From: Strigamia acuminata
Taxonomy: Eukaryota > Arthropoda > Chilopoda > Geophilomorpha > Linotaeniidae
Length of the DNA stretch: 60,000 bases
NCBI GenBank assembly: GCA_949358305.1
Contig: OX442314.1
Span: 51,036,581 to 51,096,580 of the forward strand
Direction of reading: 5' to 3'
Under the pieces are notes generated by a model. The model searched no databases. It was given only the letters and a program-made list of their open reading frames with translations, and was not told where the DNA came from. The translations under genes were made by a program, and so were the position numbers. This document shows positions 1 through 23,516 of the stretch, one piece after another. Every line of letters begins with the position of its first letter. Positions within the stretch are counted from its first letter, which is position 1.

Positions 1-228
1 CTTCCATCACGCCGCCAGTGTTACTGTTGGCGTGCTCTGCTGTAGGAATTAAATCAAGGTTCAAGTCGTCCCACTTGAATAGTTCCTTATTTAATTTGGT
101 TGCAAGTACAATTGGTGGGGGTTTCTGATCCTTTCCAGATAATTCAAATAAATCATCTGAAAATTCCGAGAAATCGAATGGGTCTGTTTTAATGGGGGCT
201 GAAATGGTTGGTTCAACCCCCCTTAACA
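1..228 (-). CDS. pol: E0 Pol, N-terminal part (frameshift product, truncated by window edge)
   Basis: From the frameshift heptamer at 229-235 the -1 frame stays open through base 1, about 76 codons with no stop. It has no start codon, so it is read as the N-terminal linker of Pol made only as a Gag-Pol fusion. The stretch is acidic and hydrophilic and upstream of any protease motif. No enzyme domain is visible inside the window, so the assignment rests on position and frame only. Confidence 0.65.
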
Positions 229-235
229 GTTTTTT
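194..235 (-). other. E0 programmed -1 frameshift signal at the Gag/Pol junction
   Basis: Minus-strand heptamer A AAA AAC at 235-229, phased X XXY YYZ to the Gag frame, three codons before the Gag stop. Six bases downstream a G6 run (222-217) can pair with a C5 run (198-194), enclosing a smaller GGTT/AACC hairpin. Spacer and phase match known retroviral -1 sites. The pairing was read by eye, not folded. Confidence 0.75.
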
Positions 236-2505: not shown

Positions 2506-3955
2506 GATATTTTTGTTCAAAAATATGAAAACACAAAGTGAGAAGTTGAAAAATCGGCGATAGATTCGGTGTGAGATTACGTACCGTTTAGTACGTAACC
2601 GACAAAATCGAACAACAACAAAAATTGGCGATAGGTTCGGTGTTAAAACGTGCACTGTGGGGTACACGAAAAACAACAAGAAAATAACGCCCAAAAAATA
2701 GATTGGAGTACTGAGGATTTTAATACAACACTAGCGCGGAGAAACAGTCACGCCTAAAGTAAAACTAGAGAAAGAATAGTACAACTGATTCTTTAAACTT
2801 GGTGTGGGCAAAACACACTTAAACTACAAAAATGAAATACACTTTTTATACTAAACTAGCGCTTAGGAAGGTGCGCTTTAAACTACAATGTTTTAACAAA
2901 ATTACACTTAACTTTACGGCTTTTTCGGATGCAAAATGGTCCAAACGAACAAGGTGGTCACGGTCCAAAATGGTGGTCAAGAGACGTCCAGTCAGTGTGG
3001 ATGCAAGAAGGCAAGTGGTCTTCACACTTCCCAAAAAATGAATTTTGGGGGTTAATCCGTTCAGTGGGATTGGACGAATGAAAAAATGACACATTTGACG
3101 TGTGCCACTCATTCATCACCCAACAATGCATTTCCTTTTCTGGATATGCCACCCACTGAGTTTTGGTCCAAATTCTTTTTCGAGAATTTGAACTTTGCCA
3201 TTCTTGTCAGCAAGATTAACCTGTTTTTTAAGACAAGTCAAAATCGCCCATTCTCCACAGCTGCTTGACAATCTCCAGTCTCTTTGTAAAGAGAAAATTG
3301 TTTTTATTTCTTTTTCGGGAAATAATCACAAAATACTACCATTAGTCACATTTTTGGTGAGAAAATATGACCTCTTCAGACTACCATCCAAGTGTCGTTA
3401 ACTTTTCGTACAAAAAGTTAAAGTTCAAGCATTTTGATTAGAAATAACTTAAACAATGGACAGCATCGTAAATTCTTCTAGTTGTAGAAACTTCTGTTTG
3501 TTTGTCGAGAATCAAAACTTTTTATTCAAAAGAAATGATCCAACAAACGTCTGGCACATTTATTTATATTTTTTGCGAAATAATAAATAACGTACGGTAG
3601 TCTACTTGTTACACATTCTTGTGAGAAAAATGCAACTAGACTCGGGAGACAGTGTTGAAATAATATTTCGATTAAAATATTAACAACACTGTGAAATTTG
3701 TAATTATATTTTTCTTTTTCGAGAGAAAATACAACAAACAAATCAAAAATCGTAATTTTCTCGTTAAAGAAAATCACAACACGAACAAAACGGTTATAAA
3801 TTTCTTTTTTAAGAAAATTTACAACACGGACATTTAGTCATAATTTTCTGGTTAGAAAAAATACAACTCAGCCATAATTTTCTTGGTAAAGAAAAATTAC
3901 AACAAAAATGTCAAAATTCAAAATTTTACCTAAGTTCACTTTTAGCTTGCAACCT
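2506..3955 (-). other. E0 untranslated leader between primer site and Gag
   Basis: About 1.45 kb without a credible coding frame, unusually long for a Ty3/gypsy leader. It is AT-rich and holds degenerate short repeats (see 3705-3910). Several short open frames read through it on both strands but none has coding character. Confidence 0.6.
3705..3910 (-). repeat. Degenerate ~45-bp repeats, each with a small inverted repeat
   Basis: On the minus strand a TGTTGT(n)ATTTTCTTT...AGAAAAT unit recurs about five times at roughly 45-bp spacing. In each copy the TTTTCTT and AAGAAAA arms face each other over a short loop, so the RNA could fold as a row of small hairpins. Related but more degenerate copies appear near 3290-3370. 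Confidence 0.6.
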
Positions 3956-7052: not shown

Positions 7053-7320
7053 GGTAAGGAAAGACGAAGTTTTGAGCGTTTAGCGAAGATTTGGCATCGT
7101 TATTGTCGGAATTCCCTACCTACAGATCGCTCGTGCGGCGATGGCAAACACCGGAGCACGCTCAACGGTGGTTCGTGACGGCGGCAACGAACGTGGGCTG
7201 CGCGTGTGACAAACGGTGTTTGGCACACGCAAAGGAGATTAAATGAGACACTAAACTAGGGATAAATTGCGGGTGTCAGCTATGGTTGGTACGATTGTTT
7301 TGAAAAGCATTTTTCATATT

Positions 7321-7508
7321 GTGACAGCACATTATCACCTTTATTTTCGATAACGCGAAGTCAGAGGGCCAAAAGTTACAACAATCTGCCTAAAAAAGAA
7401 AAAAATCGTTTTACGTAGCAAACGTAAATCGTTTTTTTGTTTTTTTGGGTAGATTGTGGTAACTTTGGGGCGACTGACTTTGCGTTATCGAAAATAAAAA
7501 TGACAATG
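7321..7508 (+). repeat. Foldback MITE, copy 1
   Basis: Nearly full-length palindrome: GTGACAGCACATTATCACC...TTTCGATAACG pairs with CGTTATCGAAAATAAAAATGACAATG, centred on ACGTAGCAAACGT. The second copy at 23249-23444 is complete at both ends. This copy lacks the terminal GTGCTGTCAC and joins directly to flanking sequence shared with copy 2. Confidence 0.8.
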
Positions 7509-7607: not shown

Positions 7608-7643
7608 ACGTGTGGCGTCATGGCGATTAACGTCCGCCAAACG

Positions 7644-8604
7644 TGTAATGAGCCCAAATTATTATTAAATAAATAATAATAATTCTAGACTTATTGATGC
7701 TTAGACAAGACTTATCATAAAAACTACTCTCTAATATAAAACTCACAAAATGGTTTATTCTGACTTAGAATAAGATAAATTACAGTGATGAATAAAGCTT
7801 AATGGAAATAAGAAATGAAATAATAGATGAAATGACGAATTAACTTCAAATCGACGTGGAAACGTTATTCTGACGATTCCAACGTTCCGGCGATGATAAC
7901 GGCTCGTTTCGTCGCGCTTCTACGGCTCTCTTTCGACGCTCGACTCGATTTTCTACTCGGCGTCGCTCCTCGGTGAAACGGACTTGTTCCGTGACTCAAC
8001 TTCTTGAAATTGTCTGGCACAAATCGACTCCCGTCGATTTGCTTGGTCAGCCGGACTCTTTCCGATACTTCTTCTACACGTTCTCCGCAACTCCGTCGTC
8101 TTGGCGGCGAAACTGCGACTCTTTCGCACAACAATCTCTTCTCAACAATGTCGTTGAGACAAGATGAAATCTCACAATTGTATTCGTACAATTGCAAGAA
8201 TGGACTCTAGCTGGATCCCTCTCAGCAAGAGTGTGGCTTCCCGTGTCACTAGTTGTGGTGGCACAAGATGAATCTAGCTGGATTCTTCACAGCAAGATTA
8301 GGAGTATAAAACTTCACGGAGGTTTTCACAAAATACTGGAGGATTTCTCTGGGTTATTTTGTGTTGTTTCTCTGGCAAAGTTGAATTCATACTGAGGAGT
8401 TCTCACTCCTCTCAGGACTCATTTCCTGTTTGGAGGCTTGTGGGCTGGTTACCCTGGCAACCACCCACATTTCCTCCCACTCTACTTAGCTTTCTTGCCT
8501 GTAGACAGGAAGCATAAAAAACTCAAACTAAAATATAATAAACTAAAATATAATTTTACAGACTTTTTTCTGTTACTTCCTTAGTGACCACTAGGGTCAC
8601 TACA
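7644..8604 (-). repeat. E1 3' LTR
   Basis: 961 bp, TGTAATGAG...GTCACTACA on the plus strand. Minus-strand AATAAA at 7754-7759 is a plausible poly(A) signal. The open frames at 7865-8197, 7973-8167, 8004-8210 and 8192-8395 recur unchanged in the other LTR and are not genes. Confidence 0.95.
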
Positions 8605-8647: not shown

Positions 8648-11600
8648 CTAGTCTTCGTATTGAGCAGTGGGGTCCAGGACTGGTACCTCACTCTCAGACA
8701 CCGAAAATCGGGGCATTCCCCGAGTTGGACCCGACGCTGCTCCATTATTGACATGGAGCCAAACTTCAGTAATGTCCGTCGTCGTCGGGAATACTCTCGC
8801 ATAGTCCATGTCGTACTTCTCCCGTGTGCCCGTTGGTGCCTTACGGACAGCAATCACTCTTCGATGCTGGGTCACCCTTTTTGGTTCCCGGACCGCATTT
8901 TCCAGCCATTTGAGAGCGTCATGGCTCAAGGTGTTGCTGTAGATCAACATGGTTCTTGTGGCCTCGGATATTCGCAATTTTGGATAAAGGTAACGAATTT
9001 TCCCGAAATCTTGGTTTTTGCTTCTCCTCGCCCCTGGTTTGGGCGTTTTGTCGATGTTGGCCAACCCTCTTCTGGAGACGTCCGATTCCTTGGCCGAGGA
9101 CTCAATTCCTTCTCGCCTACTTTGATCTATTTCGCTGCCACACGCCTCGGATTCGGAATTTCTTGCCGACCTGTTCATGGCCAATTGGTGGGCCATTGGC
9201 GTGTAGGTCGCAGCTGGTTTAGCTCGAGTTGAGTGTACGTTTGACATCCTCATTGGTGTGGTCGCCATCAGAATTGTTGGTACTTCTTCGATCGTGGGCG
9301 CAGGTGGTTCCATTGGAGCCCACTCCATTTGTTTCTGCTCCACAAAAGTACGGAACTTCTGTTGAGCCATTACGTTTTGATAATGTTGGACCCATTCAGC
9401 CCTCAGTCGCATCGCGCACTGGTCCGGCGTTTCCCCATTTCCCAGGACATCCTTCATTAGTTGTGCTCGTACTGCTGGCGGGTCTCTTAAGATGGAAGTC
9501 CAGTTTCCGATCATCTCGTTGGGGATTCCTAACGCGGCCGTCCACAGGAAAGTGGTGGCGATGAATGTCGTCTCGACTGAGGGGAAAACTCCTGGAAACA
9601 TTACTCTGTAGAATGCGGCGTCTAGCAGTGGTTGGAACTGTCCGAGCCACTCCGTCGTTTGCAGTTCCACTGCTTGCTGCACGAACTCTCTCGCTCTCCT
9701 TCTGAGGTCGTTGATCGCTTCGTGAATCTGCGCGTTCTGGTACTCGTCTAAATTTGCCTTCAATAATCCTTGGTGGCAAAGTGGAAATCGCAGAAACATC
9801 TCCCAAAGTGGACGATAGTCTTTATCGAACCCCTCCTCTGGCTGCATTGCGGGATTATTCGAGTAAGGTGCCGTGGCCAAATTTGGAACGGGCAACGTGA
9901 TGTTTACAGCAGGGATTTGCTCCGTGAACGGCAAAGTGTGTGGATTTACCCCTTGCTGTTCTCTTGGTTTAGCCTTTCGTGGGTCCTTCGCCTTTTGCGA
10001 CTCGTCAACTCGAATCTCCACTTCCGCTTGCGGTCTCTTTACCGTTTCTCGTCTGTCTTCTGTTTGAGGCTTTACGGGTCTTCTTGGATCTCTTCCTCCG
10101 CGGATGATTGATGATCTCCCTCGTGGGCGTAATATTCTCGGCTTCGATTTCCTCTCTTTAACCCCTTTCGCCATTTGGGCATGTTTTATCGCCAAAGCTT
10201 CATCCAACGTGGGTAGGTCGACGAAACTGTACGTCTCCGGTGGTGATTTCCTCGGAGTCGGTGTTGGAGGCACAGACCGTGGCGTCCACGTAATTGGTGT
10301 ATGGGTACCAATGACTGGTGATCTTGGTGGAGTCGCTTGAGGCGTCCTTGGCCCTGTCGGACTTTTTTCCGTTTCCTCAAGTTCATAGGTGATCACGGAC
10401 GTTATCTCCTGCGAAAGCTGCGTCTCTTCTGGTTCCTCTTCAGAAATTTGCATCTTCTCCTGACCTTCCAACGAAATTTCCCGCACCTCGTCTACAAGCA
10501 CGTATTCATTTTCAGACGCAGAGTAGTATGAATCGCTGCTTTCTTCCACTTGGATTCTCAAAATATCTTCATCGTCCTGTGTCACAGTTCGTTTTGGACG
10601 CATTTCGGAGTATCGGTGCGATCGTTTCGCCTCGCTTTTCGCTCCTTGTCGCTTGGTTGACGAATTTCGACTTGAATGTTCTTGCCTTTCCCTCGGACTC
10701 AATTCCGGACTTCGACTGTCTCTTCTACGGGAACAGGAAACATATTTTACTTTACGTCGTTCCGACGAGTGACTTTGATGCTCCCTTGTTTCTTGTCGCA
10801 TTCTTTCGTTTCGTTCAAGGGGTCTTGTTTCCCTACTTCGGTTTCTCGACGTACTTTGCTTCGGCGGAGTTTCTTTCCTCCGTCTGTCGCGTCCTCTGTA
10901 TCGAAGTGCTCCTCGGGTCCTTGCTTCCCTTCCTCTTCGAGCTAACTCATGTTGTTCAGATCGGAATTCATCATAGTTTCTATCTCTAGAATGGTGACTT
11001 CTCGATGACTGATGAGGTTTCGGACTTAATTCCGACTTTTGTTGACTTCTGGATGCTGATCGACTTCTCGGATGGCGTGTGGATGTTGTAGATCTTTCTG
11101 ACCTCTTTGGCGGAGTCTTCTTTCGCTGCACCGTACTTCGTGGTCGTCTTGACGAATACTCCTCTTTTCGAGTTGTCTGGGGCGGTGTCTTTCTTCGACG
11201 CTCTGGACTTGGCTCCTGATCGGCCTGAGATCTTTTATCTCTACGCTCCCTTTCCTCCCTCTCTAGCCGTTGCCTTTTTACGTAATAGAGAGGTCCGAAG
11301 TCATCTCGCAACTCTGGTTTCTCCTTTGATACAGGAGTGATGTGGACACCAAGTACCCCTGCCATCGTCAATTGATGCATTTTATATTGAGAGTCCACGT
11401 AATAGGGTGGTACAGTTTCCAAATCTGGTTCGTCTAGCAATGCCTGCTCCGCCTGCCATTTCGCCTTCTTCTCCAAATACTCGGCTGCTACATCCGCCAT
11501 GCCCTCCTGAAGTCGATTCATCACTTGCCGTGCAAATTGAATTCGATTTGTCGCCGGGTCACAATAAATGACATAATCCTCCGCTTCTTCTGGAGTCATC

Positions 11601-11878
11601 GGAAAATCCTCGCCTATCAATTCGTTCCAAATTGGTCCATGTGTGTCCGTTAATATTGAAATTAATTTTAACATTTCATGGAAACACGTTTTGAAACCTT
11701 TGAACAGTCTTTTCAGGGTTCCCCAGCGTCGTTGCATGGCTAATGAGATGAATTGTCTGACGTTGGCTGGTTTGTAGCCTCTCTGCTCGAATATTCTTTT
11801 CAACTTTCGATGGATTCTTCCCCGATAGAAGGTTCGTGGGACTCTCGCGTTTTTGGGTAATGCGTCCCATGATTCCAT
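8648..11878 (-). CDS. E1 3' ORF: arginine/serine-rich protein in the env position
   Basis: 1076 codons from ATG at 11878, ending 30 nt before the polypurine tract. Residues 1-210 are basic then mixed helical and contain a PPYY motif (157-160), the late-domain consensus that binds WW domains of Nedd4-type ligases. Residues about 205-430 are dense in RS, SR, RE and KR pairs, like splicing-factor RS domains. An acidic Ser-rich stretch and a Thr-Pro-rich stretch follow. Around residues 720-880 is a more globular helical region (WEMFLRFPLCHQ..., FLWTAALGIP). I see no signal peptide, furin site or transmembrane anchor, so it is not a classical envelope. An AT-rich tract ending TTTATAG lies about 12 nt before the ATG and would suit a splice acceptor for a subgenomic mRNA. 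Function is unknown. Confidence 0.85.
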   Translation of the reverse strand: MESWDALPKNARVPRTFYRGRIHRKLKRIFEQRGYKPANVRQFISLAMQRRWGTLKRLFKGFKTCFHEMLKLISILTDTHGPIWNELIGEDFPMTPEEAEDYVIYCDPATNRIQFARQVMNRLQEGMADVAAEYLEKKAKWQAEQALLDEPDLETVPPYYVDSQYKMHQLTMAGVLGVHITPVSKEKPELRDDFGPLYYVKRQRLEREERERRDKRSQADQEPSPERRRKTPPQTTRKEEYSSRRPRSTVQRKKTPPKRSERSTTSTRHPRSRSASRSQQKSELSPKPHQSSRSHHSRDRNYDEFRSEQHELARRGREARTRGALRYRGRDRRRKETPPKQSTSRNRSRETRPLERNERMRQETREHQSHSSERRKVKYVSCSRRRDSRSPELSPRERQEHSSRNSSTKRQGAKSEAKRSHRYSEMRPKRTVTQDDEDILRIQVEESSDSYYSASENEYVLVDEVREISLEGQEKMQISEEEPEETQLSQEITSVITYELEETEKSPTGPRTPQATPPRSPVIGTHTPITWTPRSVPPTPTPRKSPPETYSFVDLPTLDEALAIKHAQMAKGVKERKSKPRILRPRGRSSIIRGGRDPRRPVKPQTEDRRETVKRPQAEVEIRVDESQKAKDPRKAKPREQQGVNPHTLPFTEQIPAVNITLPVPNLATAPYSNNPAMQPEEGFDKDYRPLWEMFLRFPLCHQGLLKANLDEYQNAQIHEAINDLRRRAREFVQQAVELQTTEWLGQFQPLLDAAFYRVMFPGVFPSVETTFIATTFLWTAALGIPNEMIGNWTSILRDPPAVRAQLMKDVLGNGETPDQCAMRLRAEWVQHYQNVMAQQKFRTFVEQKQMEWAPMEPPAPTIEEVPTILMATTPMRMSNVHSTRAKPAATYTPMAHQLAMNRSARNSESEACGSEIDQSRREGIESSAKESDVSRRGLANIDKTPKPGARRSKNQDFGKIRYLYPKLRISEATRTMLIYSNTLSHDALKWLENAVREPKRVTQHRRVIAVRKAPTGTREKYDMDYARVFPTTTDITEVWLHVNNGAASGPTRGMPRFSVSESEVPVLDPTAQYED

Positions 11879-12596
11879 CGCTTTTCTTGTCTATAAATTA
11901 AATTTTCATTAATTTTTTATCTTTTTACGAAATTATTCTCAATTGTGTGTGTCATTTTCTTAATTTTTCGTTTCATAAAATTCTCGCCAGATGGCGTTCT
12001 TTCGTATATCGCGACGTATTTTCATGTCGCTTTTCTCAAGTTTTTGCCAGTATTTACTAATTTTGTCACATAAAACTAATTATTTCTGATAGTTTTAACT
12101 TAGTTTTAGCCTTCTTAGCGATATTCCATGCTTATCTCGATCTTTTATCGGTTTTGTGATCGCGTCTCCGTATTTACGACTTATTTTGTTTCGTCTCTTA
12201 CGATCATCGATAAATTTTTACTTTTATGACACGCACAATTGATGAATAATGATAACTATTATTTTGGATCTCTTATCCTTAGTTTTTTCGACTTAATTCG
12301 ATTTTTTACTACCTCTTCGTGTACCGGTTTCTTCGGTTTTGGCGGCGGACGAAAATCTTGATTCATCGTGGTGTTGATGATTGCTCCGTCCGGACTTCCT
12401 CGTAATTCCTTGTTGTTCGATCGTTTGATGCTTAGTTTAAATCACTCCAACGTTTTTGTTATTGTTTTGACGAATGTCTCCACACATGTGATTTTTACTT
12501 CACGTTGAATCGACATGCGGTTCGTTCAACCAATCACGATCGAGCTGCGACGTCGTCCACTTCCGGACTCCCGAGTGACGTCGCTACCTTCTATTT
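11879..12596 (-). other. E1 spacer between Pol and 3' ORF
   Basis: 718 bp, AT-rich, without a credible open frame. Its downstream end holds the candidate splice acceptor for the 3' ORF. Confidence 0.5.
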
Positions 12597-15500
12597 TTAG
12601 AGGTAGTCTGGAGGTTTAATCCTCCCTCTGTCTCGAAGTGGATATTTCTTCAAGACAGCTTTCTTTTTAATTGTCTTGGGTTGATTTTCGCGCAGATCTT
12701 TATATCTTTGTTTTGTTTTCACTTTTTTCACCACTTCTCCCCCCTTTTTAGGAAACGACGCAACTTGTTCGTCTGTTTCCACAACTAAATTTTTTGGAAA
12801 AAGTGGCACATCAACTTGTGATTTCTGTTGCAAAGTTGCGCTCAATTCTTCATTAATATCTTCACTTTGTTTGACTTGCTGCTCGCTTGGAATTGCAAAA
12901 TCTATTTCCTCATTATTTTCCGTGTTTGATGAACTTGGCGTTGTTTGTAATTCCTGTTGTTCTTGCGAAATTTGCGAATCTTGCAAATTTTGTGTTTGAT
13001 CCAAAATTTGTGATTCTTCCGAATTTCCTTGATTTTGCGAATCGTCTAAATTTTGCATTTGACGCAAAGTTTGAGATTCTATTGAATTACTGCCTTGAAT
13101 TTGTTCATTCTGCACGTTCTGCGAACTCTCTATATTTGCAATTTCTTGCATTTCGGATGGTGATGGCTCGTCGAACAAAGTGTTAATAATTTTTCCTTCC
13201 GGGTTACTTTGTGTTTGGCCTTTTTCCCAAATTTCTTGATTAAATTCCGGGAAAAACGGCGTTAACTCGGACATGTGAATGGAACGCAAGATCTTATTAT
13301 CTTTAAGTCGTCTTAATTTGACAGCTCCGCCCTGGTGAACTTTAATAATAACATATGGTCCACTTCTCTTGTCGGATAATTTCGCAGAAATTCCCTGTGA
13401 CGCTTTTGACAAAGTGTGATCTTCTTTCCATACAAGGTCATTTGTTCGAAAATCTTGGAATTTCCCATCTAATTTATGGTTGTCCACACGCTCACGAAGG
13501 TCCATGATGTGTGCCATCATATGATGGTACGTGTCGCGAATGACCTTCTCTAATCGTTGGATGTAAATGTGTGGCTTATTTGGGTCAATTTTCAAAATTC
13601 CATCCAAAATTCGAGGATCCCACGGTATCCTAAATTCTCTGCAACAATTCAAATATGCCGGCGAGTAATCACGGCCTGTTGTTGCTGTTGTGCGTATACT
13701 AAACGCTATCTTTCTTAGATATTCGTCCCAGCGCTTGTGGATCGATGTGTAGATTGACAAAATATATTTTAAATCTCTGTTGGTCCTTTCCACGGTGTTG
13801 GCTTGGGGATGATATGGTGATGTAAATCGCGGCACGATTTTGAACTTTTTACAAAATTCATGATAAAGTCGTGCTTTAAATTGCGGTCCGTTATCCGATA
13901 TGATTCGGAGCGGAAATCCCCAGCCCATGCATGTGTCATATAAACAGTCTGCTATATCTTGTGCCACCGGGTCTGCCAGCGGATAAAGTTCTGGCCAGCG
14001 AGTGGCTATATCCAGAATCACCAAAATATAGTTATTTCCTGTTTCCGTTCTAGTTAACGGTCCTACTAAATCGATACTCAAACATTCAAATGGCGCATAC
14101 GGGCCAATTTGAGCTGGTTCTACTCGTGTCCTTGTTCTGGGTTTACACGCTTGGCAGCGAGAACAATGTTTAATAAATCGAGCTGTATCTCGTTTCATCC
14201 CCTCCCACGTATACACTTGTCGCATTCGATAAAGTGTCCGTGCTATTCCACAGTGGCTCGCCAAAGGATGTCCGTGCATTTGCCACAGAACTCTAAATCT
14301 CAATGATCTCGGCACTACAATTTTAAGTGCTCTCGAATCCTCTGCCAAATCATCCGACATTGTTGGGTGATATTTGAGTAAAAGGTTTTCTTCTACAAGG
14401 TGTTTTGTTGCTAAAATCCGATATTTTTTTCTATGCAACGGAGTTTTCACGTATGTGGGAAATTGCTCAGTTTCAAGATAATGTCGCATGGCCTGACAGT
14501 GGCGGTCTTTGATCTGGTGATCAACGAGCTCTTCTCGTGTCGGCGGTGTGCAGTTTGCCTGTTCCGTCACTTTTGCAATAAATGCCGTGACCATCTCGTT
14601 TTCAGAAGTTGGCATGTACTGCCATTCTTTCTTTTCTTTTGGACTCTGTTCCAACTCTTCACTTGATGCGCTATACATCTGACACCAATACGATGCGACT
14701 TCTTCGTCTTCAGCCAATGGTCGTGGTAATTGGTTCCAATTTCCTACCACCCATTTGCGTGGCTCAGTTGGACAATATCGCAGATCGCCGTCAGCTTCTC
14801 CTGTGTCCTCCGCGTCGCAAATTATCTGAATTGGCGCCCTGGACAATGCGTCTGCCAAAGTGTTGGTTGTCCCTTTCAAATACTGAATTTGGAAATTGTA
14901 AGACATTAATTCCATCTGCCAACGGGCAAGACGGCCTGCTGGCTCTTCCAGTCTCATCAACCATTTCAGGGCCTCATGGTCAGTTTGTACGACAAAGCTC
15001 GTAAATTCGAGGTACGGCCTAAATTTTCGCAGTGCCCATATGACAGCTAAACACTCGAGGTCGGTGGCGCCGTAATTGAGTTCTGCTTGCTGCAGACATC
15101 GGCTGACATAGACGCATGGGGATTCTATCATCTGGCCGTCAATTTCCTTCATTTGCATTAAAGCAGCGCCTAAACCCTTTTTGCTTGCATCTGTTCTTAC
15201 AATGAAAGGTTGATCTAAATTTGGCAGGTGCATTGTCTTTGCATCAGTTAATAACTTTTTTATTTCATCAAATGCAACTTGGTGCTCATTTTCCCATAGG
15301 AACTCTATTCCTTTCTTCAACAGTGGGCGTAGTGGTGCCGCTACAGTTGCCAAATCTTTTAAAAGACGGTGGAAAAAGTTGACCATTCCGAGGAATCTCT
15401 GGAGCTCAGTCAAATTCTTTGGCGCTGGAAATTCCGAGATTGCCGCTACTTTCGCGGGGTCTACACTTAATCCATTAATTCCTAATTTATATCCTAGGAA

Positions 15501-17672
15501 TTTGAGTTCCTTCCTACAGAATTTGGACTTAGTCGGATTCACATGTAATCCGGCTTGCTGTAGTTTTCCCAATACTGAGTCCAAGTGCTTCATATGTTCA
15601 GCATATGTCTTTGATACGATCACTATATCGTCCAAGTAGGCCCAAGCATATTTCCTGAATGCTTCGCCTAATACCTTTTCAATCAATCGTTGAAATGTTG
15701 TTGGCGCGTTGACCAGCCCGAAGGGCATGACATTGAACATTAAACGACCCATGGGGCTCCAGAAAGCCGTTTTTGGGCGGTCTTCCGGTCTCAGGTCTAT
15801 TTGCCAATATCCCTTCGTTAAGTCGATGGTCGACACCCACTGGAATTCTCCTAATTCTCTTAAGATTTCCGTAATGGTCGGCATCTGTGGCGGGTCATAA
15901 AGGGTATGTTCGTTCAGCGCTCTGTAATCGATACAGAGGCGTGGCTCCGAACCTGGTCTCATTACCAGTACGATTCGCGTTGCGTAATCCCCTTCAGCTT
16001 CTGATACATAGCCTTTGTCGATCATCTCCTGGCAGAGGGTCCTTAAAATTTCGCGCTTCTGCGGGTTCCAAGATTTAAATGGAACTCGGATCGGTTTATC
16101 CGTGTCTAAGTTTATCGTATGTTGGAGCACGTGTGTTTTTCCAGGATTCTTGCTGAGTATCTTTTCATATTTCCTCAGCACATGCTCCAATTGTACTGCC
16201 TCAGTTAATTGCAGTTTTGCCTCTTCGATCATGTCATGGACTCCATTTCCAACCTTCAACCTCGCCTCGAATGCACAAAAGCTACTTTCTTTTCTAAATG
16301 TTTTCAATGACGATTCGGGCTCTTCTTTCTTTTGCTCATATTTATCAAGAAGATACTGCGGTATGTAAGGTTGTGGTACATCTATTGTCGTGATGAAATT
16401 CCATTTACCGTTGAGTGGATTCGGCTGTATTTTCATCCTCTTCATTGCGTCATTGCCGATTAACATGAACTTCATGTCGTGAGGCAACACTAAGAAATAC
16501 TGCTGCATCATACCATGAGTCCATCTAATCATCATCCTAATTGTTCCCATAGGTTGGACTTGTTTATCCGCTGTATTTACAGTCATGTTGGCTTTGAGAG
16601 GCCAAACTTGTTTTTCCAACCCCATCGCTTGAATCAGTGGCCAAGAAATACAACTGCGGTTGGCGCCGGAATCCAACATCGCGGCGATCGAACCTTGTTC
16701 TGTCTTGATGTCAATCGTCGTCATCCCTTCTAAAACATCTTCTTCGGGGAGTAGAATGTTAAAGACTCTAATTCTTGGTCCTTCTGGCTCCAAAGTTGTT
16801 AATTCCTTTAGGAGTGGGTCCCAATCCACTGGTTCAACTGACGTATCGGTCATCCAAGCCGCTATAGATGGAGTTTCTTCATAGGTCTTTTTTACCTTCG
16901 TCCAAAAAATAGTCGCCTCATTTTCTTGTATCAATTTTACATCTTTTAATGCTTCGGTCACTTTGACTGTGAAATACGATTTGTCAAATTCATTTGATCG
17001 ATAAGCTTCTTGTATTACAGGTGGGCAGTCTTTTATTTCTAGAGGTGGGAATCTCATTCCGACGAGTTGTCCACACTCCATGTCACAGATCATTTCACCT
17101 CTTTTTGGCATTGTGCCGATTGCTTCTGGTGGCGTGAGTATTATAGGAATAGTTGTATTTTTGAGTGGTCCATTATCGCCTAAACTGTCCGATTTTGATG
17201 AACACCCGGCTATTTCCGGTTTTGTTGAATACCCGGCTACTTCCGGTTTTGGTTCCGATGTTGCTTTTGGGGCTGGAAATTTCAATCCCACAACTTCGCC
17301 ATCTTCGTAATCAACAACTATTGTTCCTCTTCCACCTTCCAACGTTCCAATTACTTTTCGTGGTTTTTCAGTCAACTCCGATTGCAAATATTCTCCGGTT
17401 TTACTGTCCTTGATGAATCGTGATCCAGAAGGCGCTTCCACCGTAGGTTGAGTCTTCTGGATATTTTCAATCGAATTTTCTTGTTCCACAGCTGTTTTTA
17501 ATATTAAGGAAGTCTCTATTACTTTTCCATCTATTGGTAGTGTTTCTATCAATTTTTCCGAGTTCTCTAGCACTTTTACAGATAGGGCTGTTGTTGGTTG
17601 GGCATTTTGCAGTTTTTCCGAATTTTTGGTCAGCGCGAGCTCTACTGCTTTTCCTGAGCCCGCGCGTTCAAG
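12597..17672 (-). CDS. pol: E1 Pol: protease, reverse transcriptase, RNase H, integrase
   Basis: No ATG fits the start. The frame is entered at 17672 by -1 slippage from the zinc-knuckle frame. Residues below are counted from 17573. Retropepsin motif DSGAN at 301, with the later flap partner MLIGND. RT has STIDLTKGYWQI, MPFGLVNAPTTFQRL and the catalytic YLDD at 646-649. RNase H has RTDASKKGLGAAL and TDHEALKWL. Integrase has the HHCC zinc site (HGHPLASHCGIA...CSRCQAC) and the catalytic triad IDLVGP, SDNGPQF (D at 1227) and E in VERTNRD. It ends with a GPY/F module (GPYVIIKV, about 1405). The remaining C-terminal tail is Gln/Asn/Ser-rich and low complexity. All catalytic residues are present, so the enzyme set looks functional. 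Confidence 0.97.
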   Translation of the reverse strand, partial: LERAGSGKAVELALTKNSEKLQNAQPTTALSVKVLENSEKLIETLPIDGKVIETSLILKTAVEQENSIENIQKTQPTVEAPSGSRFIKDSKTGEYLQSELTEKPRKVIGTLEGGRGTIVVDYEDGEVVGLKFPAPKATSEPKPEVAGYSTKPEIAGCSSKSDSLGDNGPLKNTTIPIILTPPEAIGTMPKRGEMICDMECGQLVGMRFPPLEIKDCPPVIQEAYRSNEFDKSYFTVKVTEALKDVKLIQENEATIFWTKVKKTYEETPSIAAWMTDTSVEPVDWDPLLKELTTLEPEGPRIRVFNILLPEEDVLEGMTTIDIKTEQGSIAAMLDSGANRSCISWPLIQAMGLEKQVWPLKANMTVNTADKQVQPMGTIRMMIRWTHGMMQQYFLVLPHDMKFMLIGNDAMKRMKIQPNPLNGKWNFITTIDVPQPYIPQYLLDKYEQKKEEPESSLKTFRKESSFCAFEARLKVGNGVHDMIEEAKLQLTEAVQLEHVLRKYEKILSKNPGKTHVLQHTINLDTDKPIRVPFKSWNPQKREILRTLCQEMIDKGYVSEAEGDYATRIVLVMRPGSEPRLCIDYRALNEHTLYDPPQMPTITEILRELGEFQWVSTIDLTKGYWQIDLRPEDRPKTAFWSPMGRLMFNVMPFGLVNAPTTFQRLIEKVLGEAFRKYAWAYLDDIVIVSKTYAEHMKHLDSVLGKLQQAGLHVNPTKSKFCRKELKFLGYKLGINGLSVDPAKVAAISEFPAPKNLTELQRFLGMVNFFHRLLKDLATVAAPLRPLLKKGIEFLWENEHQVAFDEIKKLLTDAKTMHLPNLDQPFIVRTDASKKGLGAALMQMKEIDGQMIESPCVYVSRCLQQAELNYGATDLECLAVIWALRKFRPYLEFTSFVVQTDHEALKWLMRLEEPAGRLARWQMELMSYNFQIQYLKGTTNTLADALSRAPIQIICDAEDTGEADGDLRYCPTEPRKWVVGNWNQLPRPLAEDEEVASYWCQMYSASSEELEQSPKEKKEWQYMPTSENEMVTAFIAKVTEQANCTPPTREELVDHQIKDRHCQAMRHYLETEQFPTYVKTPLHRKKYRILATKHLVEENLLLKYHPTMSDDLAEDSRALKIVVPRSLRFRVLWQMHGHPLASHCGIARTLYRMRQVYTWEGMKRDTARFIKHCSRCQACKPRTRTRVEPAQIGPYAPFECLSIDLVGPLTRTETGNNYILVILDIATRWPELYPLADPVAQDIADCLYDTCMGWGFPLRIISDNGPQFKARLYHEFCKKFKIVPRFTSPYHPQANTVERTNRDLKYILSIYTSIHKRWDEYLRKIAFSIRTTATTGRDYSPAYLNCCREFRIPWDPRILDGILKIDPNKPHIYIQRLEKVIRDTYHHMMAHIMDLRERVDNHKLDGKFQDFRTNDLVWKEDHTLSKASQGISAKLSDKRSGPYVIIKVHQGGAVKLRRLKDNKILRSIHMSELTPFFPEFNQEIWEKGQTQSNPEGKIINTLFDEPSPSEMQEIANIESSQNVQNEQIQGSNSIESQTLRQMQNLDDSQNQGNSEESQILDQTQNLQDSQISQEQQELQTTPSSSNTENNEEIDFAIPSEQQVKQSEDINEELSATLQQKSQVDVPLFPKNLVVETDEQVASFPKKGGEVVKKVKTKQRYKDLRENQPKTIKKKAVLKKYPLRDRGRIKPPDYL

Positions 17673-17678
17673 TTTTTT
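17633..17678 (-). other. E1 second -1 frameshift signal (zinc-knuckle frame to Pol)
   Basis: Heptamer A AAA AAC at 17678-17672, in phase with the upstream frame (ACA AAA AAC). After a 6-nt spacer (TTGAAC) comes a stem of ten pairs: GCGCGGGCTC (17665-17656) with GAGCTCGCGC (17642-17633), one of them G-U, closing a 13-nt loop. The stop of the upstream frame (17642-17644) falls at the edge of this stem. Heptamer, phase, spacer and GC-rich stem all fit a canonical -1 signal. Confidence 0.88.
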
Positions 17679-18217
17679 GTAAGGTTGTCTGATAAAGAAT
17701 TAATGAGATGTTCCATTTCTTCTTTAGACAACATTCTCTTTGGTTGTTGACATTGCCGTACCCAGTGTCCAACTTGGCCACAATTATGACACGGTGCATT
17801 TTCCGGTGTCAATTTTGCTTGACTGGTCTTATTACCATCTGTTGCGCCGCCTGGCGTAGAAGTCTGTCCCTTATTTTCACCTAATTGTGGAGTTTGTACT
17901 TCTATTTTTGAGTTGAAGTCGACAGAATACGGTTTGGTTGGAAAGGATGAATTTCCTTGTGTCTGTGGTTGCACAACCATTTGATGTGGCAACCTTGTTT
18001 GCATTTGCGGTTTGTATTTTGTTATCGCTGGATTGTTCCGTGTAAACAATACGCTTGCCGCGTCCATCAAAGTATTTAATTCATTTTCCGAGTAGTCTGT
18101 CAACATTATTTGTGTATCACCGACTGATTCGGTTACTTCGGACGGGTCTTGTACCCATTTGACCGTTGGTCGCGTTGGTACTCGTGGTTGAGGATAAGGC
18201 GATGGTCCACTTTCTTG
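17642..18217 (-). CDS. E1 nucleocapsid-type zinc-knuckle frame (middle, frameshift-accessed)
   Basis: 192 codons in the -1 frame from the heptamer at 18217-18223 to the TAG at 17642. An internal ATG exists at 18106, but the frame is open and protein-like upstream of it (Pro-rich, then SEVTESVGDTQI), so frameshift entry is more likely than initiation. It carries one CCHC knuckle (CHNCGQVGHWVRQC), the RNA-binding motif normally at the C terminus of Gag. The Gag ORF itself has no knuckle, so the nucleocapsid would be present only in the extended product. Confidence 0.8.
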   Translation of the reverse strand, partial: QESGPSPYPQPRVPTRPTVKWVQDPSEVTESVGDTQIMLTDYSENELNTLMDAASVLFTRNNPAITKYKPQMQTRLPHQMVVQPQTQGNSSFPTKPYSVDFNSKIEVQTPQLGENKGQTSTPGGATDGNKTSQAKLTPENAPCHNCGQVGHWVRQCQQPKRMLSKEEMEHLINSLSDNLTKNLNARAQEKQ

Positions 18218-21200
18218 TTTTTTGGTGGCCCTTCCTCCCGAGATACTAAAAATTGCGAGCGTGGACGCATCATTTTTGCACCGGATCTCGTATAGTCTGA
18301 GTGGTGTCGCTGCAAGTCATCCCGTGCTCTTTGCTCTTCCAGCGGGAGGTCTGATGCATATCTGTCATCAATATACATTTGATTGTTCCTTATAAACTCT
18401 TGTAATTTTTCGAAAGAGCTGGCCATTGGTGCATCCACCATTCGTAATACCTTCTCGGAAAAAGGTGTCAGACCATTTCTGAATTTTCTATCTTCGTCGA
18501 AATCGCTGATGTGGTACGGGAGCTGAGCAATTAGATCTTCTGTTCGTCTTAAGTAAGACCGAATGTCTTCGCCCAACATTTGTTTGTGGTTGTCCCAATA
18601 CTTTATCATCATTGCATTGGACTCCCCGTATTCTTTCATAAATGCTTTTACAAATTCATTCCAGTGCGTGAATTTATTTTTTCGGAACCAATTCGTTGCT
18701 CCTCCAACCAACATTTTTGGTATCAACTTATGTAAAGCCACATCCGGGTCCATTTCGTGACTTGTCACCACATGCATTACTTCATCTAAAAACTGGGTTC
18801 CGATTTGCCATCCTCCATCAAACATGTCCGGATTAATGCGGTCCCACTTGATTTGGTGAGGTGAGCTGTAGTAATGTGTCCAATTATCAGTACAATATTT
18901 TAGAATAATCTTTCTTAAAACTTCCTCCATTTCCTGAGACTTTGAAGGAATTTGTGACAATTTTGAGTCAATCTGTCTCGCGATGATTTCTTCTAATTCT
19001 CTGGAACTAGTTGGTAATGCATTTAGTGGGGGCGGATCTCTATTATCCGAACGGGATTTCCCTCTATCCCATCTCTCGCCTCGTGGCCTTGAGTAGTTAG
19101 GCTCTTCACGATGAAATTGCTCAGAATGTGAGTATTTCCTTTCATACTCGTGTTGTGATGGTGGTGGACTAGAACGTGACCTTCGTTGGTCTCGGTATGA
19201 GTCGTCTCGTCGCCTATTGGAATCTTCACGTCGCCTGTGTGAATCATCACGTTGCTCATGTGAATCTCTATTCGTATAGGATTCGTACCAATAGGAGCCC
19301 CTATTTTGTTGTGAATCCTGTTGGCGACCATGTTGTGGATTTGGGCTTTCTCTTGATATCGACTCATTTCGATTATACCAGCTTTGTCCTACTGGACCAT
19401 AATCACCTTGTCTACGAGTCTCGTCTCTGAAGCGGGCGTCACTTTGCTGGCGCGGTTCGTCTTGATAACACGATATATTTCGCATGTCTGTGTCATTATG
19501 CGCTCGTGTTTCATTTGCAAATCGTACTTCACTGCGCGGACGGGCTTCTTGACGGTAATACGACTCATTTCGTAGATTTGTGTTTTCTGGTTGTTGGACA
19601 TTGTAACTGGATCGAGTCTCACTCAACTGTTGAGTGCTTCTATTGTAATTTTCGCCTGAATGTTGCGAATATTTTCCTTGTAGATAGTCGTCATAGTTTC
19701 TTATTTTCGTATAACTGGCTTGTCCAGTTGCTTCATCTTGCCCGGTTGCAGCATCTTGACTACTGCTTTTATCTTGCTCCGGAACTTCTTGATCATGTTG
19801 GAATTTTTGTTTTTCACTTTCGCGACTCAATTCGCGTTGACTATCTACTTGTTGTTTTTTCTGTGTTTCCCGCAATCTTCGTCGATCCTCTCGTTCGTTG
19901 GCTTCGGCTAACTGTTCAACCGCTTCCATGAATGTGTATGACCTTCGATAGGCGGGGTTCTCGTCATCTCGAGCGTCTTCAAGGTATTCTCCCAAGGCTT
20001 TGCCTCCACACGCGCCTTTTGTTGCAGGGTTACTGACTTTTTCAGTTTCCATTGGAGTTTGGCGATCTCTGCCATCAGAATCCATTTTTCTGCGTGCTGT
20101 CTGCCACTTTTGAAATTCATCCGGATCCACTCCTGTTACTGCACCTTGTTTTTTAATTGGTCCAGCAGGTTGGTCTGTTGCACGCTGACGATTTCTCTGT
20201 GCAATCATGTCCAGCACGTCTGGATTTTTTGCTGGTGAAACTGATGCTCTTTTAGCATCTCTTCTTTCATCCATATCACCTCTCCTTTTTAAAGGATTTG
20301 CGGACGAGCCTGGTGATAAATTGACCACTTCCGGCTGGTGTGGTGGAATGTTCGTTGGTCTGGCGTACTGGCATTGTGCAAGATATTTGAGCTCCTCATT
20401 TTCTTGGCGGACTCTTTCCGCTGCTTCTTGCGCTTCAAGAGCGTTCTGTCGAAGGTAGTGGATCTCCTTGCTTTCTGCTGTTTCCGCTGCCTGTTGTGCT
20501 GCAATTAATGCTAAACGTTCCGCTTCCACGCGGACTCTTTCCGCTGCAATCCTCTGTCTTTCGGCTTGCATAGCTGTTCGATCAGCCGCTATTTCCGCTA
20601 GACGTTTCTCCTGCAAGTCTCGATACTCGTTCGCCAAACGTATTTTTTCCTGTTCGATACGTTGATTTTCGGCACGTATCGCATCTCGATTTGCCAATTC
20701 CTGCGCTTTACGTCTATCACGTAATTCTTGACGTTCCGTTGCTAGGCGGATTCTCTCAGTTTCCATTCTGTCTTTTTCAGCTTGAATTTCTCTGTCCGAC
20801 TGGTCCTTTTTGGCACGAATTTCGTCTTCCGTCGCCTGTTTGGCCAATTCTGCCTCGTACTTCGCTTGGCGCGCTTGGCGTTCTTCCATTTTTAGACGTC
20901 TCACCATCTCGTACTCTTCCTGATGGAAATCTTGTAGCTGTCGGGTGCTGTCTTTCATCGCCTTTGTGATGTTTGCAACGTCTTCATCGGAAAGTGTAAC
21001 GCCTTCTGCGTACTGACGCTGTCGCTCTGCCAATCGATCTGCATTTTCTTGCATTAGGTCGGCGATACGTTGGCGCACTCGTGACAATTTGTGTCGGGTC
21101 GGGGAATTTTCGCCCGAAGTTTCCGCGTCGTCTCGCGCTCTTTGCTTGGCCGCGGTGTGATAATGTTTTATCAACTTCCCTCGTTTGTGAGCGACGGCGA

Positions 21201-21513
21201 TCACTTGCTCCAACGACATATTCGTCAAATCAATTTTACTGCTTGGAGTTGACGGCACGCTGGGTGGAGTTTTGTCGACTGGTGAGTTAACACAGGGCTC
21301 TTCTCTTCGAGTTTCCTGCGACGTTTCCAACCAAAAATCTTGACTGGTCAGTCGGCGCTGCTCGGGGTCTTGGTCCGATTCTCTCTCCGGACTGGATGAT
21401 GAATCGAAATACGGCTCCGCTGCTCCGCCGGTCGCTCCTCCAGCCGTACCGCCTCTAGTGCGGAGTCCTCGTCTCGTTCCTCTCCCTCTCCTCGAATCTT
21501 GTGGCAAAGACAT
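18133..21513 (-). CDS. gag: E1 Gag
   Basis: 1126 codons from ATG 21513, 128 bp after the 5' LTR; about twice the usual gypsy Gag length. N-terminal Gly/Arg-rich segment, then a long charged coiled coil (about 150-385, repeated AERxRxEAER-type heptads), then a Gln/Arg/Ser/Tyr-rich disordered part. The capsid core follows near residue 880 onward, with the hallmark TNWFRKNKFTHWNEFVKAF (W at 942). No zinc knuckle occurs in this frame; it follows in the -1 frame. The coiled coil is unusual for the family and could drive assembly. Confidence 0.92.
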   Translation of the reverse strand: MSLPQDSRRGRGTRRGLRTRGGTAGGATGGAAEPYFDSSSSPERESDQDPEQRRLTSQDFWLETSQETRREEPCVNSPVDKTPPSVPSTPSSKIDLTNMSLEQVIAVAHKRGKLIKHYHTAAKQRARDDAETSGENSPTRHKLSRVRQRIADLMQENADRLAERQRQYAEGVTLSDEDVANITKAMKDSTRQLQDFHQEEYEMVRRLKMEERQARQAKYEAELAKQATEDEIRAKKDQSDREIQAEKDRMETERIRLATERQELRDRRKAQELANRDAIRAENQRIEQEKIRLANEYRDLQEKRLAEIAADRTAMQAERQRIAAERVRVEAERLALIAAQQAAETAESKEIHYLRQNALEAQEAAERVRQENEELKYLAQCQYARPTNIPPHQPEVVNLSPGSSANPLKRRGDMDERRDAKRASVSPAKNPDVLDMIAQRNRQRATDQPAGPIKKQGAVTGVDPDEFQKWQTARRKMDSDGRDRQTPMETEKVSNPATKGACGGKALGEYLEDARDDENPAYRRSYTFMEAVEQLAEANEREDRRRLRETQKKQQVDSQRELSRESEKQKFQHDQEVPEQDKSSSQDAATGQDEATGQASYTKIRNYDDYLQGKYSQHSGENYNRSTQQLSETRSSYNVQQPENTNLRNESYYRQEARPRSEVRFANETRAHNDTDMRNISCYQDEPRQQSDARFRDETRRQGDYGPVGQSWYNRNESISRESPNPQHGRQQDSQQNRGSYWYESYTNRDSHEQRDDSHRRREDSNRRRDDSYRDQRRSRSSPPPSQHEYERKYSHSEQFHREEPNYSRPRGERWDRGKSRSDNRDPPPLNALPTSSRELEEIIARQIDSKLSQIPSKSQEMEEVLRKIILKYCTDNWTHYYSSPHQIKWDRINPDMFDGGWQIGTQFLDEVMHVVTSHEMDPDVALHKLIPKMLVGGATNWFRKNKFTHWNEFVKAFMKEYGESNAMMIKYWDNHKQMLGEDIRSYLRRTEDLIAQLPYHISDFDEDRKFRNGLTPFSEKVLRMVDAPMASSFEKLQEFIRNNQMYIDDRYASDLPLEEQRARDDLQRHHSDYTRSGAKMMRPRSQFLVSREEGPPKNKKVDHRLILNHEYQRDQRSNGYKTRPK
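18190..18223 (-). other. E1 first -1 frameshift signal (Gag to zinc-knuckle frame)
   Basis: Heptamer A AAA AAC at 18223-18217, in phase with Gag (CCA AAA AAC), 28 codons before the Gag stop. The -1 frame beyond it reads directly into the zinc-knuckle ORF. Downstream only a weak GTGG/CCAC pairing (spacer 6 nt) is visible by eye, so any stimulator here needs folding to identify. Confidence 0.78.
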
Positions 21514-21621
21514 TATTTGTTACACAGAATAGAGAAGAAAGAAACAGAAAAACTTTCTAACACAAATTTTTAAAAGACAAAATGGTGGTCCCTCAACTGA
21601 AGATAGTTGTTAAGGTTCAAA

Positions 21622-21641: not shown

Positions 21642-22602
21642 TGTAATGAGCCCAAATTATTATTAAATAAATAATAATAATTCTAGACTTATTGATGCTT
21701 AGACAAGACTTATCATAAAAACTACTCTCTAATATAAAACTCACAAAATGGTTTATTCTGACTTAGAATAAGATAAATTACAGTGATGAATAAAGCTTAA
21801 TGGAAATAAGAAATGAAATAATAGATGAAATGACGAATTAACTTCAAATCGACGTGGAAACGTTATTCTGACGATTCCAACGTTCCGGCGATGATAACGG
21901 CTCGTTTCGTCGCGCTTCTACGGCTCTCTTTCGACGCTCGACTCGATTTTCTACTCGGCGTCGCTCCTCGGTGAAACGGACTTGTTCCGTGACTCAACTT
22001 CTTGAAATTGTCTGGCACAAATCGACTCCCGTCGATTTGCTTGGTCAGCCGGACTCTTTCCGATACTTCTTCTACACGTTCTCCGCAACTCCGTCGTCTT
22101 GGCGGCGAAACTGCGACTCTTTCGCACAACAATCTCTTCTCAACAATGTCGTTGAGACAAGATGAAATCTCACAATTGTATTCGTACAATTGCAAGAATG
22201 GACTCTAGCTGGATCCCTCTCAGCAAGAGTGTGGCTTCCCGTGTCACTAGTTGTGGTGGCACAAGATGAATCTAGCTGGATTCTTCACAGCAAGATTAGG
22301 AGTATAAAACTTCACGGAGGTTTTCACAAAATACTGGAGGATTTCTCTGGGTTATTTTGTGTTGTTTCTCTGGCAAAGTTGAATTCATACTGAGGAGTTC
22401 TCACTCCTCTCAGGACTCATTTCCTGTTTGGAGGCTTGTGGGCTGGTTACCCTGGCAACCACCCACATTTCCTCCCACTCTACTTAGCTTTCTTGCCTGT
22501 AGACAGGAAGCATAAAAAACTCAAACTAAAATATAATAAACTAAAATATAATTTTACAGACTTTTTTCTGTTACTTCCTTAGTGACCACTAGGGTCACTA
22601 CA
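21642..22602 (-). repeat. E1 5' LTR
   Basis: Same length (961 bp) and ends as the 3' LTR. The right end abuts the AACG duplication at 22603. Confidence 0.95.
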
Positions 22603-22626
22603 AACGTTTTGAATTGACCTACGACG

Positions 22627-23248: not shown

Positions 23249-23444
23249 GTGACAGCACATTGTCACCTTTATTTTCGATAACGCGAAGTCAGACGCCCAA
23301 AAGTTACAACAATCAGCCTAAAAGAGAAAAAATCGGTTTACGTTACAAACGTAAATCGGTTCTTTCTCTTTTTAGGTAGATTGTGGTAACTTTGGGGCGA
23401 CTGACTTTGTGTTATTGAAAATAAAGGTGACAATGTGCTGTCAC
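23249..23444 (+). repeat. Foldback MITE, copy 2 (complete)
   Basis: GTGACAGCACATTGTCACC...GGTGACAATGTGCTGTCAC; almost the whole 196 bp is one inverted repeat with a centre at ACGTTACAAACGT. No clear target duplication is visible, so the superfamily is not assigned. Confidence 0.85.
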
Positions 23445-23516
23445 AACTCATAATCATCCCAACTATCGAAATTATTTCCAACTTTCATTATTGACGTTTC
23501 TCCTGATTTTGTTCGC

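What the first reader, a model, noticed from the sequence alone, without database searches (positions are those of the whole stretch)
17633..18223. Two successive -1 frameshift sites with the same A AAA AAC heptamer in one gypsy element
E1 Gag, the zinc-knuckle frame and Pol lie in three frames, each -1 from the last. At each junction the overlap contains a correctly phased A AAA AAC (18217-18223 and 17672-17678). The frame beyond each site is open and protein-like from the slip point. This is a betaretrovirus-like Gag / Gag-NC / Gag-NC-Pol plan, unusual for Ty3/gypsy elements, which mostly use one shift or a single frame.
Basis: partly seen in the sequence, partly recalled or inferred. Interest (0 to 1): 0.87.

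Follow-up and report, generated by a model that had tools for sequence, protein, structure and literature searches.

The report
One frameshift site, one private indel
A mobile element in an unnamed eukaryote genome appears to make its enzymes by one ordinary, well-conserved ribosome slip; the second slip site reported here comes from a one-base difference seen only in this copy, so it is not a new two-step system.

Summary
Both A AAA AAC heptamers exist, correctly phased, and three frames each lie -1 from the last. The two sites are not alike.

Site 2 (17672-17678, Gag/Pol) looks like a programmed -1 frameshift site. The heptamer is intact in 40 of 40 copies found by similarity and phased with the zinc-knuckle frame. 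A 6-nt spacer and a 10-bp hairpin follow; the stem pairs in all 24 distinct rows of the 40-copy alignment.

Site 1 (18217-18223, Gag/zinc knuckle) is a private lesion of this copy. Capsid-like and zinc-knuckle parts share one frame in 52 of 54 copies. The exceptions are the window copy and L013, whose lesion lies elsewhere. L002, 99.95% identical over 3.8 kb, lacks the lesion. The window's string across it occurs once in 237.5 Mb. In 53 of 54 copies, the window's included, the site-1 heptamer reads AAA AAA C in the zinc-knuckle frame.

So the family uses Gag (with zinc knuckle), one -1 shift, then Pol, a known plan for animal LTR elements. More interesting in passing: an orphan third ORF (8648-11890).

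The parts
7644..8604 (-). 3' LTR (ends TG...CA)
   Evidence: Part of a 962-nt direct repeat, 100% identical to the 5' LTR, 0 mismatches; termini and flanks
21642..22602 (-). 5' LTR
7640..7643 (.). 4-bp target-site duplication AACG, left copy
   Evidence: sequence printed
22603..22606 (.). 4-bp target-site duplication AACG, right copy
   Evidence: sequence printed
18133..21519 (-). Gag frame as it stands in this copy (stop to stop, 1128 aa), with the capsid-like part; its last part runs on in a displaced frame after the copy's private lesion
17642..18316 (-). Zinc-knuckle (NC) frame, in this copy separated from Gag by the lesion; in 52 of 54 copies in the same frame as the capsid-like part
17744..17794 (-). 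CCHC zinc knuckle
   Evidence: Pfam PF00098, E 1.8e-6
18217..18223 (-). Site 1, AAAAAAC: slippery phase only relative to this copy's displaced Gag frame; in the NC frame it reads AAA AAA C
17672..17678 (-). Site 2, A AAA AAC: the family's likely Gag-to-Pol -1 slip site
   Evidence: present in 40 of 40 copies found by similarity, phased with the NC frame
17666..17671 (-). 6-nt spacer
17633..17665 (-). Predicted stimulatory hairpin: 10-bp stem (17656-17665 with 17633-17642), 13-nt loop
   Evidence: MFE -19.6 kcal/mol in 60 nt, 1 of 200 shuffles as good; 100% of stem cells paired in 24 distinct rows
17609..17613 (-). Possible 3' arm of a pseudoknot with loop bases 17644-17648 (unproven)
   Evidence: four of five pairs kept in 22-24 of 24 rows, the fifth in 7 of 24; no covariation
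12597..17699 (-). Pol frame: protease (weak match), RT, RNase H, integrase
   Evidence: Pfam hits in PR-RT-RH-IN order
8648..11890 (-). Third ORF between Pol and the 3' LTR, 1080 aa, no known family

Best explanation
E1 is a young, ~15.0-kb Ty3/gypsy-type LTR retrotransposon. Its family encodes Gag, with the zinc knuckle, in one frame. It makes Gag-Pol by one programmed -1 slip at A AAA AAC (17672-17678), helped by a 10-bp hairpin 6 nt downstream; ribosomes that do not slip meet a stop 25-34 nt after the heptamer's first base. The apparent first shift is a one-base indel seen only in this copy (a mutation or an assembly error), lying between the capsid-like part and site 1. It displaced Gag so that an ordinary lysine-codon stretch now looks like a slip site. 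Shown: frames, phases, conservation, predicted hairpin, private lesion. Inferred: that ribosomes slip at site 2, how often, and that the hairpin forms and matters.
For: Capsid and NC anchors share a frame in 52 of 54 copies. The 0 frame has no stop for at least 1,532 nt upstream of site 2 in 50 of 54. L002 differs from the window copy by 1 mismatch and 1 gap over 3,802 nt and has an undisturbed Gag-NC frame. The window's 31-nt string across the lesion occurs once in the genome. Site 2 is present in 40 of 40 similarity-found copies and phased with the knuckle anchor in 54 of 54; the 0-frame stop lies at +25 to +34 in 54 of 54, and the -1 frame runs at least 801 nt beyond site 2 in 54 of 54. Pol anchor in -1 in 51 of 54. 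Hairpin. In the Pol frame the 3' arm codons GAG CTC GCG are invariant in 26 of 26 representatives, while codons further downstream take up to 11 forms. A different element beside it (L060) has a phased A AAA AAC, a hairpin after it (2 of 200 shuffles as good) and Pol in -1.
Against: No translation data. The stem hardly varies (one G-U to A-U change), so no covariation supports it. With 100 nt instead of 60 the fold is not exceptional (30 of 200 shuffles as good). Part of the stem codes in two frames, and a few Pol codons outside the stem are invariant too (+57 and +75 to +83). Pol anchor was not in -1 in 3 of 54 copies (L016, L022, L031). All copies come from one genome and are related. The 14 extra copies were found with a pattern that contains the heptamer and part of the stem, so they are not independent evidence for site 2.
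Confidence: 0.95

Rival explanations
1. The family truly uses two programmed -1 shifts (Gag / Gag-NC / Gag-NC-Pol), like betaretroviruses.
For: Both heptamers are the same and phased in the window copy; AAAAAAC is present at site 1 in 53 of 54 copies.
Against: Capsid and NC are in one frame in 52 of 54 copies, where site 1 is out of slippery phase. No notable structure after site 1 (39 of 200 shuffles as good). The string across the lesion is unique in the genome. Retained AAA codons need no special cause: 268 of 358 lysine codons in the last 600 nt of Gag-NC of 25 representatives are AAA.
Confidence: 0.01
2. In this one copy the pre-existing A-rich heptamer works by accident as a compensatory -1 site that partly restores Gag-NC.
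For: Phase and direction are right and the next frame is open; A AAA AAC is among the shiftiest heptamers for mammalian ribosomes, and compensatory frameshifting of indels is a described class (passages of PMC5009743).
Against: No stimulatory structure found. The LTRs are 100% identical, so there has been little time for selection to favour it (inference).
Confidence: 0.1
3. The one-base difference near site 1 is a sequencing or assembly error and the copy is intact there.
For: Only this copy has it; its sister L002 is otherwise almost identical.
Against: Not tested; no reads are held here. Frame lesions also occur in at least one other copy (L013).
Confidence: 0.3

Closest known systems
Animal LTR retrotransposons with pol in the -1 frame (survey of 2003 as cited in PMC5009743, passage read: 28 of 51 animal elements, many with classical heptamers)
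   Same: Gag with zinc knuckle, one -1 shift at a classical heptamer, then Pol
   Different: Long Gag frame (1128 aa stop to stop as it stands), ~15-kb element, extra third ORF; that these are unusual is my judgement, not from a call
Betaretroviruses (MMTV, JSRV), -1/-1 pattern (PMC1224870, passages read)
   Same: -1 direction; A AAA AAC at MMTV gag-pro is recalled, not from a call
   Different: Family has one shift, not two; the zinc knuckle lies before the only shift; one zinc knuckle, not two; no separate protease frame
Neighbouring element in the same genome (Gag 223-2730 of the window, Pol in L060)
   Same: Phased A AAA AAC, downstream hairpin, Pol in -1; zinc-knuckle and Pol motifs read by eye, no Pfam scan
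   Different: Different Gag and hairpin (strong stem after 7 nt, plus a weak outer helix in the prediction); frames overlap by only 16 nt

Membership tests
Ty3/gypsy (Metaviridae) LTR retrotransposon | Pol order PR-RT-RNaseH-IN | tested here: met
   Pfam matches at residues 335-421, 585-739, 802-934, 1129-1298; the best PR match (25.6 bits) is below its curated cut-off (28.2)
Ty3/gypsy (Metaviridae) LTR retrotransposon | Paired LTRs with TG...CA ends and short target-site duplication | tested here: met
   962-nt repeat 100% identical; AACG on both sides
Ty3/gypsy (Metaviridae) LTR retrotransposon | tRNA primer-binding site after the 5' LTR | not tested
   Sequence printed but not matched to a tRNA
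Programmed -1 frameshift signal (site 2) | X XXY YYZ in the 0 frame, conserved | tested here: met
   40 of 40 copies found by similarity; knuckle anchor in that frame in 54 of 54
Programmed -1 frameshift signal (site 2) | Structure 5-9 nt downstream | tested here: met
   Predicted: 6-nt spacer, 10-bp stem, z -2.87 in 60 nt but -1.02 in 100 nt; spacing range from PMC5009743. No covariation
Programmed -1 frameshift signal (site 2) | Measured frameshift product | not testable with these tools
   Needs an assay
Programmed -1 frameshift signal (site 1) | Slippery phase conserved in relatives | tested here: not met
   In 53 of 54 copies the heptamer reads AAA AAA C in the NC frame, which in 52 of 54 copies is also the capsid frame; L025 lacks the heptamer
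Programmed -1 frameshift signal (site 1) | Downstream structure | tested here: not met
   z -0.82 in 60 nt, -0.35 in 100 nt
Betaretrovirus-like -1/-1 plan | Three frames with two -1 shifts in the family | tested here: not met
Betaretrovirus-like -1/-1 plan | Two NC zinc fingers | tested here: not met
   One stretch matched PF00098; two expected per PMC1224870 (passage)

The most novel reading that the evidence does not exclude
A copy-private indel has placed a pre-existing, non-programmed A AAA AAC into slippery phase, so that this one young copy makes some Gag-NC by accidental compensatory frameshifting: a snapshot of how a two-shift plan could arise.
Probability: 0.08. Interest if true: 0.4.

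Novelty: new member of a known kind. Interest (0 to 1): 0.15.

Why it matters
It shows how reading a single copy can turn a fresh indel into an apparent recoding system, and gives a clean contrast: same heptamer, one site conserved in phase with a hairpin, the other not. Site 2 adds a well-defined heptamer-plus-hairpin signal to those of animal LTR elements. If site 1 were active after all, it would be a natural test of compensatory frameshifting.

Tried and rejected
Two-shift plan: rejected on the single-frame relatives. Pseudoknot at site 2: loop bases can pair downstream in most rows, but a 4-bp match may well be chance and does not covary; left open. Functional conservation of the site-1 heptamer: it is kept in 25 of 26 representatives, but lysine codons there are mostly AAA (268 of 358, window copy left out), and an 11-nt stretch about 50 nt upstream is fully invariant. 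L055-L059, found by the hairpin pattern, are a different repeat without long open frames there and were left out of the copy counts. Host naming: the nematode-type telomere repeat gave one hit, no more than its reversed controls. The three best-scoring Pol proteins, of the 120 listed out of 2928, are from Trichinella papuae and the pseudoscorpion Cordylochernes at 36-39% identity; host not identified. Structure of part of ORF3: mean pLDDT 44, too poor for a fold search. dN/dS of ORF3: the script crashed at the fourth pair (window with L065) after three pairs; cause not looked into.

Papers: passages of PMC5009743 and PMC1224870 were read; all others were seen only as search listings (7 of 7, 20 of 30, 20 of 21 and 12 of 92 papers listed). 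I saw no listed title or abstract opening about a Ty3/gypsy element with two -1 shifts; that is no proof of absence.

Full report
The observation. On the minus strand of the window three long frames follow one another, each -1 from the last: Gag (18133-21519, stop to stop, 1128 aa), a 224-aa frame with a CCHC zinc knuckle (17642-18316; PF00098, E 1.8e-6) and Pol (12597-17699; RT, RNase H and integrase above their cut-offs, protease weaker and below). A AAA AAC lies at 18217-18223 and 17672-17678, each in the right phase for a -1 slip. As a description of this copy the finding is accurate.

The element. A 962-nt direct repeat with no mismatch marks the LTRs (7644-8604 and 21642-22602), with TG...CA ends and a 4-bp duplication AACG on either side. 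The element is 14,959 bp and, with identical LTRs, probably very young. The host genome is 237.5 Mb and was not identified. The three best-scoring Pol proteins (of 120 listed out of 2928; only 7980 candidates were scored) are from Trichinella papuae and the pseudoscorpion Cordylochernes, at 36-39% identity.

Relatives. A similarity search with the 801-nt junction gave 40 scored copies out of 55 candidates, 73-100% identical, the window's own included. A pattern search for heptamer plus half the stem gave 59 places. Of the 19 not yet fetched, 14 are further copies of the family and 5 (L055-L059) are an unrelated repeat, left out. That makes 54 copies, in 26 groups at 97% identity, lowest pairwise identity among representatives 68%. 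More decayed copies may have been missed.

Site 1 is a private lesion. Peptide anchors from the capsid-like part and from NC were located in each copy. They share one frame in 52 of 54. The exceptions are the window copy itself and L013. In L013 the displaced frame meets a stop before site 1, so it is a separate lesion further upstream. The 0 frame is free of stops for at least 1,532 nt upstream of site 2 in 50 of 54 copies; the four that fail are L001 (the window), L006, L013 and L022. L002, with 1 mismatch and 1 gap against the window copy over 3,802 nt, has the undisturbed frame. A 31-nt string across the lesion occurs once in the whole genome, in the window. Whether the one-base difference is a mutation or an assembly error cannot be told without reads.

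What site 1 is in the family. AAAAAAC is present there in 53 of 54 copies, the window included (L025 lacks it), and reads AAA AAA C in the NC frame, hence is not slippery in that frame. A net +1 displacement of Gag shortly upstream, with no stop in between, puts it in slippery phase (inference). AAAAAAC is not enriched in the window. The sequence after it has no notable fold (39 of 200 and 67 of 200 shuffles as good for 60 and 100 nt). Its conservation (25 of 26 representatives) is matched by an invariant 11-nt stretch about 50 nt upstream and fits a preference for AAA (268 of 358 lysine codons in the last 600 nt of Gag-NC, 25 representatives, window copy left out).

Site 2 looks like a programmed frameshift signal. 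The heptamer is intact in 40 of 40 copies found by similarity, and the zinc-knuckle anchor lies in its 0 frame in 54 of 54. The 0 frame stops 25-34 nt after its first base in all 54 copies, and the -1 frame is open for at least 801 nt beyond it in all 54. The Pol anchor lies in -1 in 51 of 54; L016 gave a weak match in +1, L022 a match in 0, L031 none. Six nucleotides downstream stands a predicted 10-bp stem with a 13-nt loop (-19.6 kcal/mol, 1 of 200 shuffles as good in 60 nt; in 100 nt 30 of 200). The stem pairs in all 24 distinct rows of the alignment of the first 40 copies, with a single G-U to A-U change and no covariation. The 46 nt from heptamer to stem end are the most conserved 46-nt stretch of the junction alignment (mean 0.976; best non-overlapping 0.932; one window at the very start gave no value). 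The 3' arm lies at or beyond the 0-frame stop (in copies with the stop at +34 its first base is the last base of that stop), so it is almost wholly Pol-coding, and its codons GAG CTC GCG are invariant in 26 of 26 representatives although many neighbours vary; some codons outside the stem (+57, +75 to +83) are invariant too. This suggests constraint on the RNA, but invariance alone does not prove pairing. A pseudoknot with downstream bases is possible but unproven.

A second, different element next door has the same plan: a Gag ending in a zinc knuckle (by eye), a phased A AAA AAC, a hairpin whose strong stem starts after 7 nt (2 of 200 shuffles as good), and Pol in -1 with a 16-nt overlap.

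Comparison. [quoted passage not shown] that A_AAA_AAC is among the shiftiest heptamers with mammalian ribosomes; and that 5-9 nt is the spacer length most studied (PMC5009743, passages read). Site 2 fits all three. [quoted passage not shown] This family has one shift and one knuckle. The same paper notes that indels after integration make the original frames of proviruses hard to define, which is what happened here if the difference is real.

Verdict. One ordinary, well-supported frameshift signal, and one apparent site that owes its phase to a damaged (or mis-assembled) copy. The more unusual thing in this element is its third ORF, listed under things noticed.

Noticed in passing
8648-11890 (-): A third ORF of 1080 aa between Pol and the 3' LTR, with no Pfam match and no relative at E <= 0.001 among the 7994 candidates scored from about 5.8 billion proteins. 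It matches in 5 of the 6 other copies examined, whose longest frames are 1012-1087 aa; L064 had no match, and L065 has a stop inside its N-terminal part. dN/dS 0.14-0.15 in the three pairs computed. Two conserved ends flank a variable Arg/Ser-rich middle. A conserved orphan gene in the place where env usually sits; no function known.
   Followed up: partly
223-2730 (-) and L060: Neighbouring LTR element with its own A AAA AAC plus hairpin Gag/Pol -1 junction at the window's edge.
   Followed up: partly
7319-7508 and 23249-23446: A ~190-nt repeat on both sides of the element, 90% identical in direct and 83% in inverted orientation, perhaps insertion into or beside another repeat.
   Followed up: no
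45697-48613 (-): Another gypsy-like Pol (by eye) split over two overlapping frames (330 and 659 aa); whether this is a shift or decay was not tested.
   Followed up: no
18133-21519 (-): Long Gag with a Gln/Arg/Glu-rich, coiled-coil-like (by eye) N-terminal half before the capsid-like part; no Pfam match.
   Followed up: no
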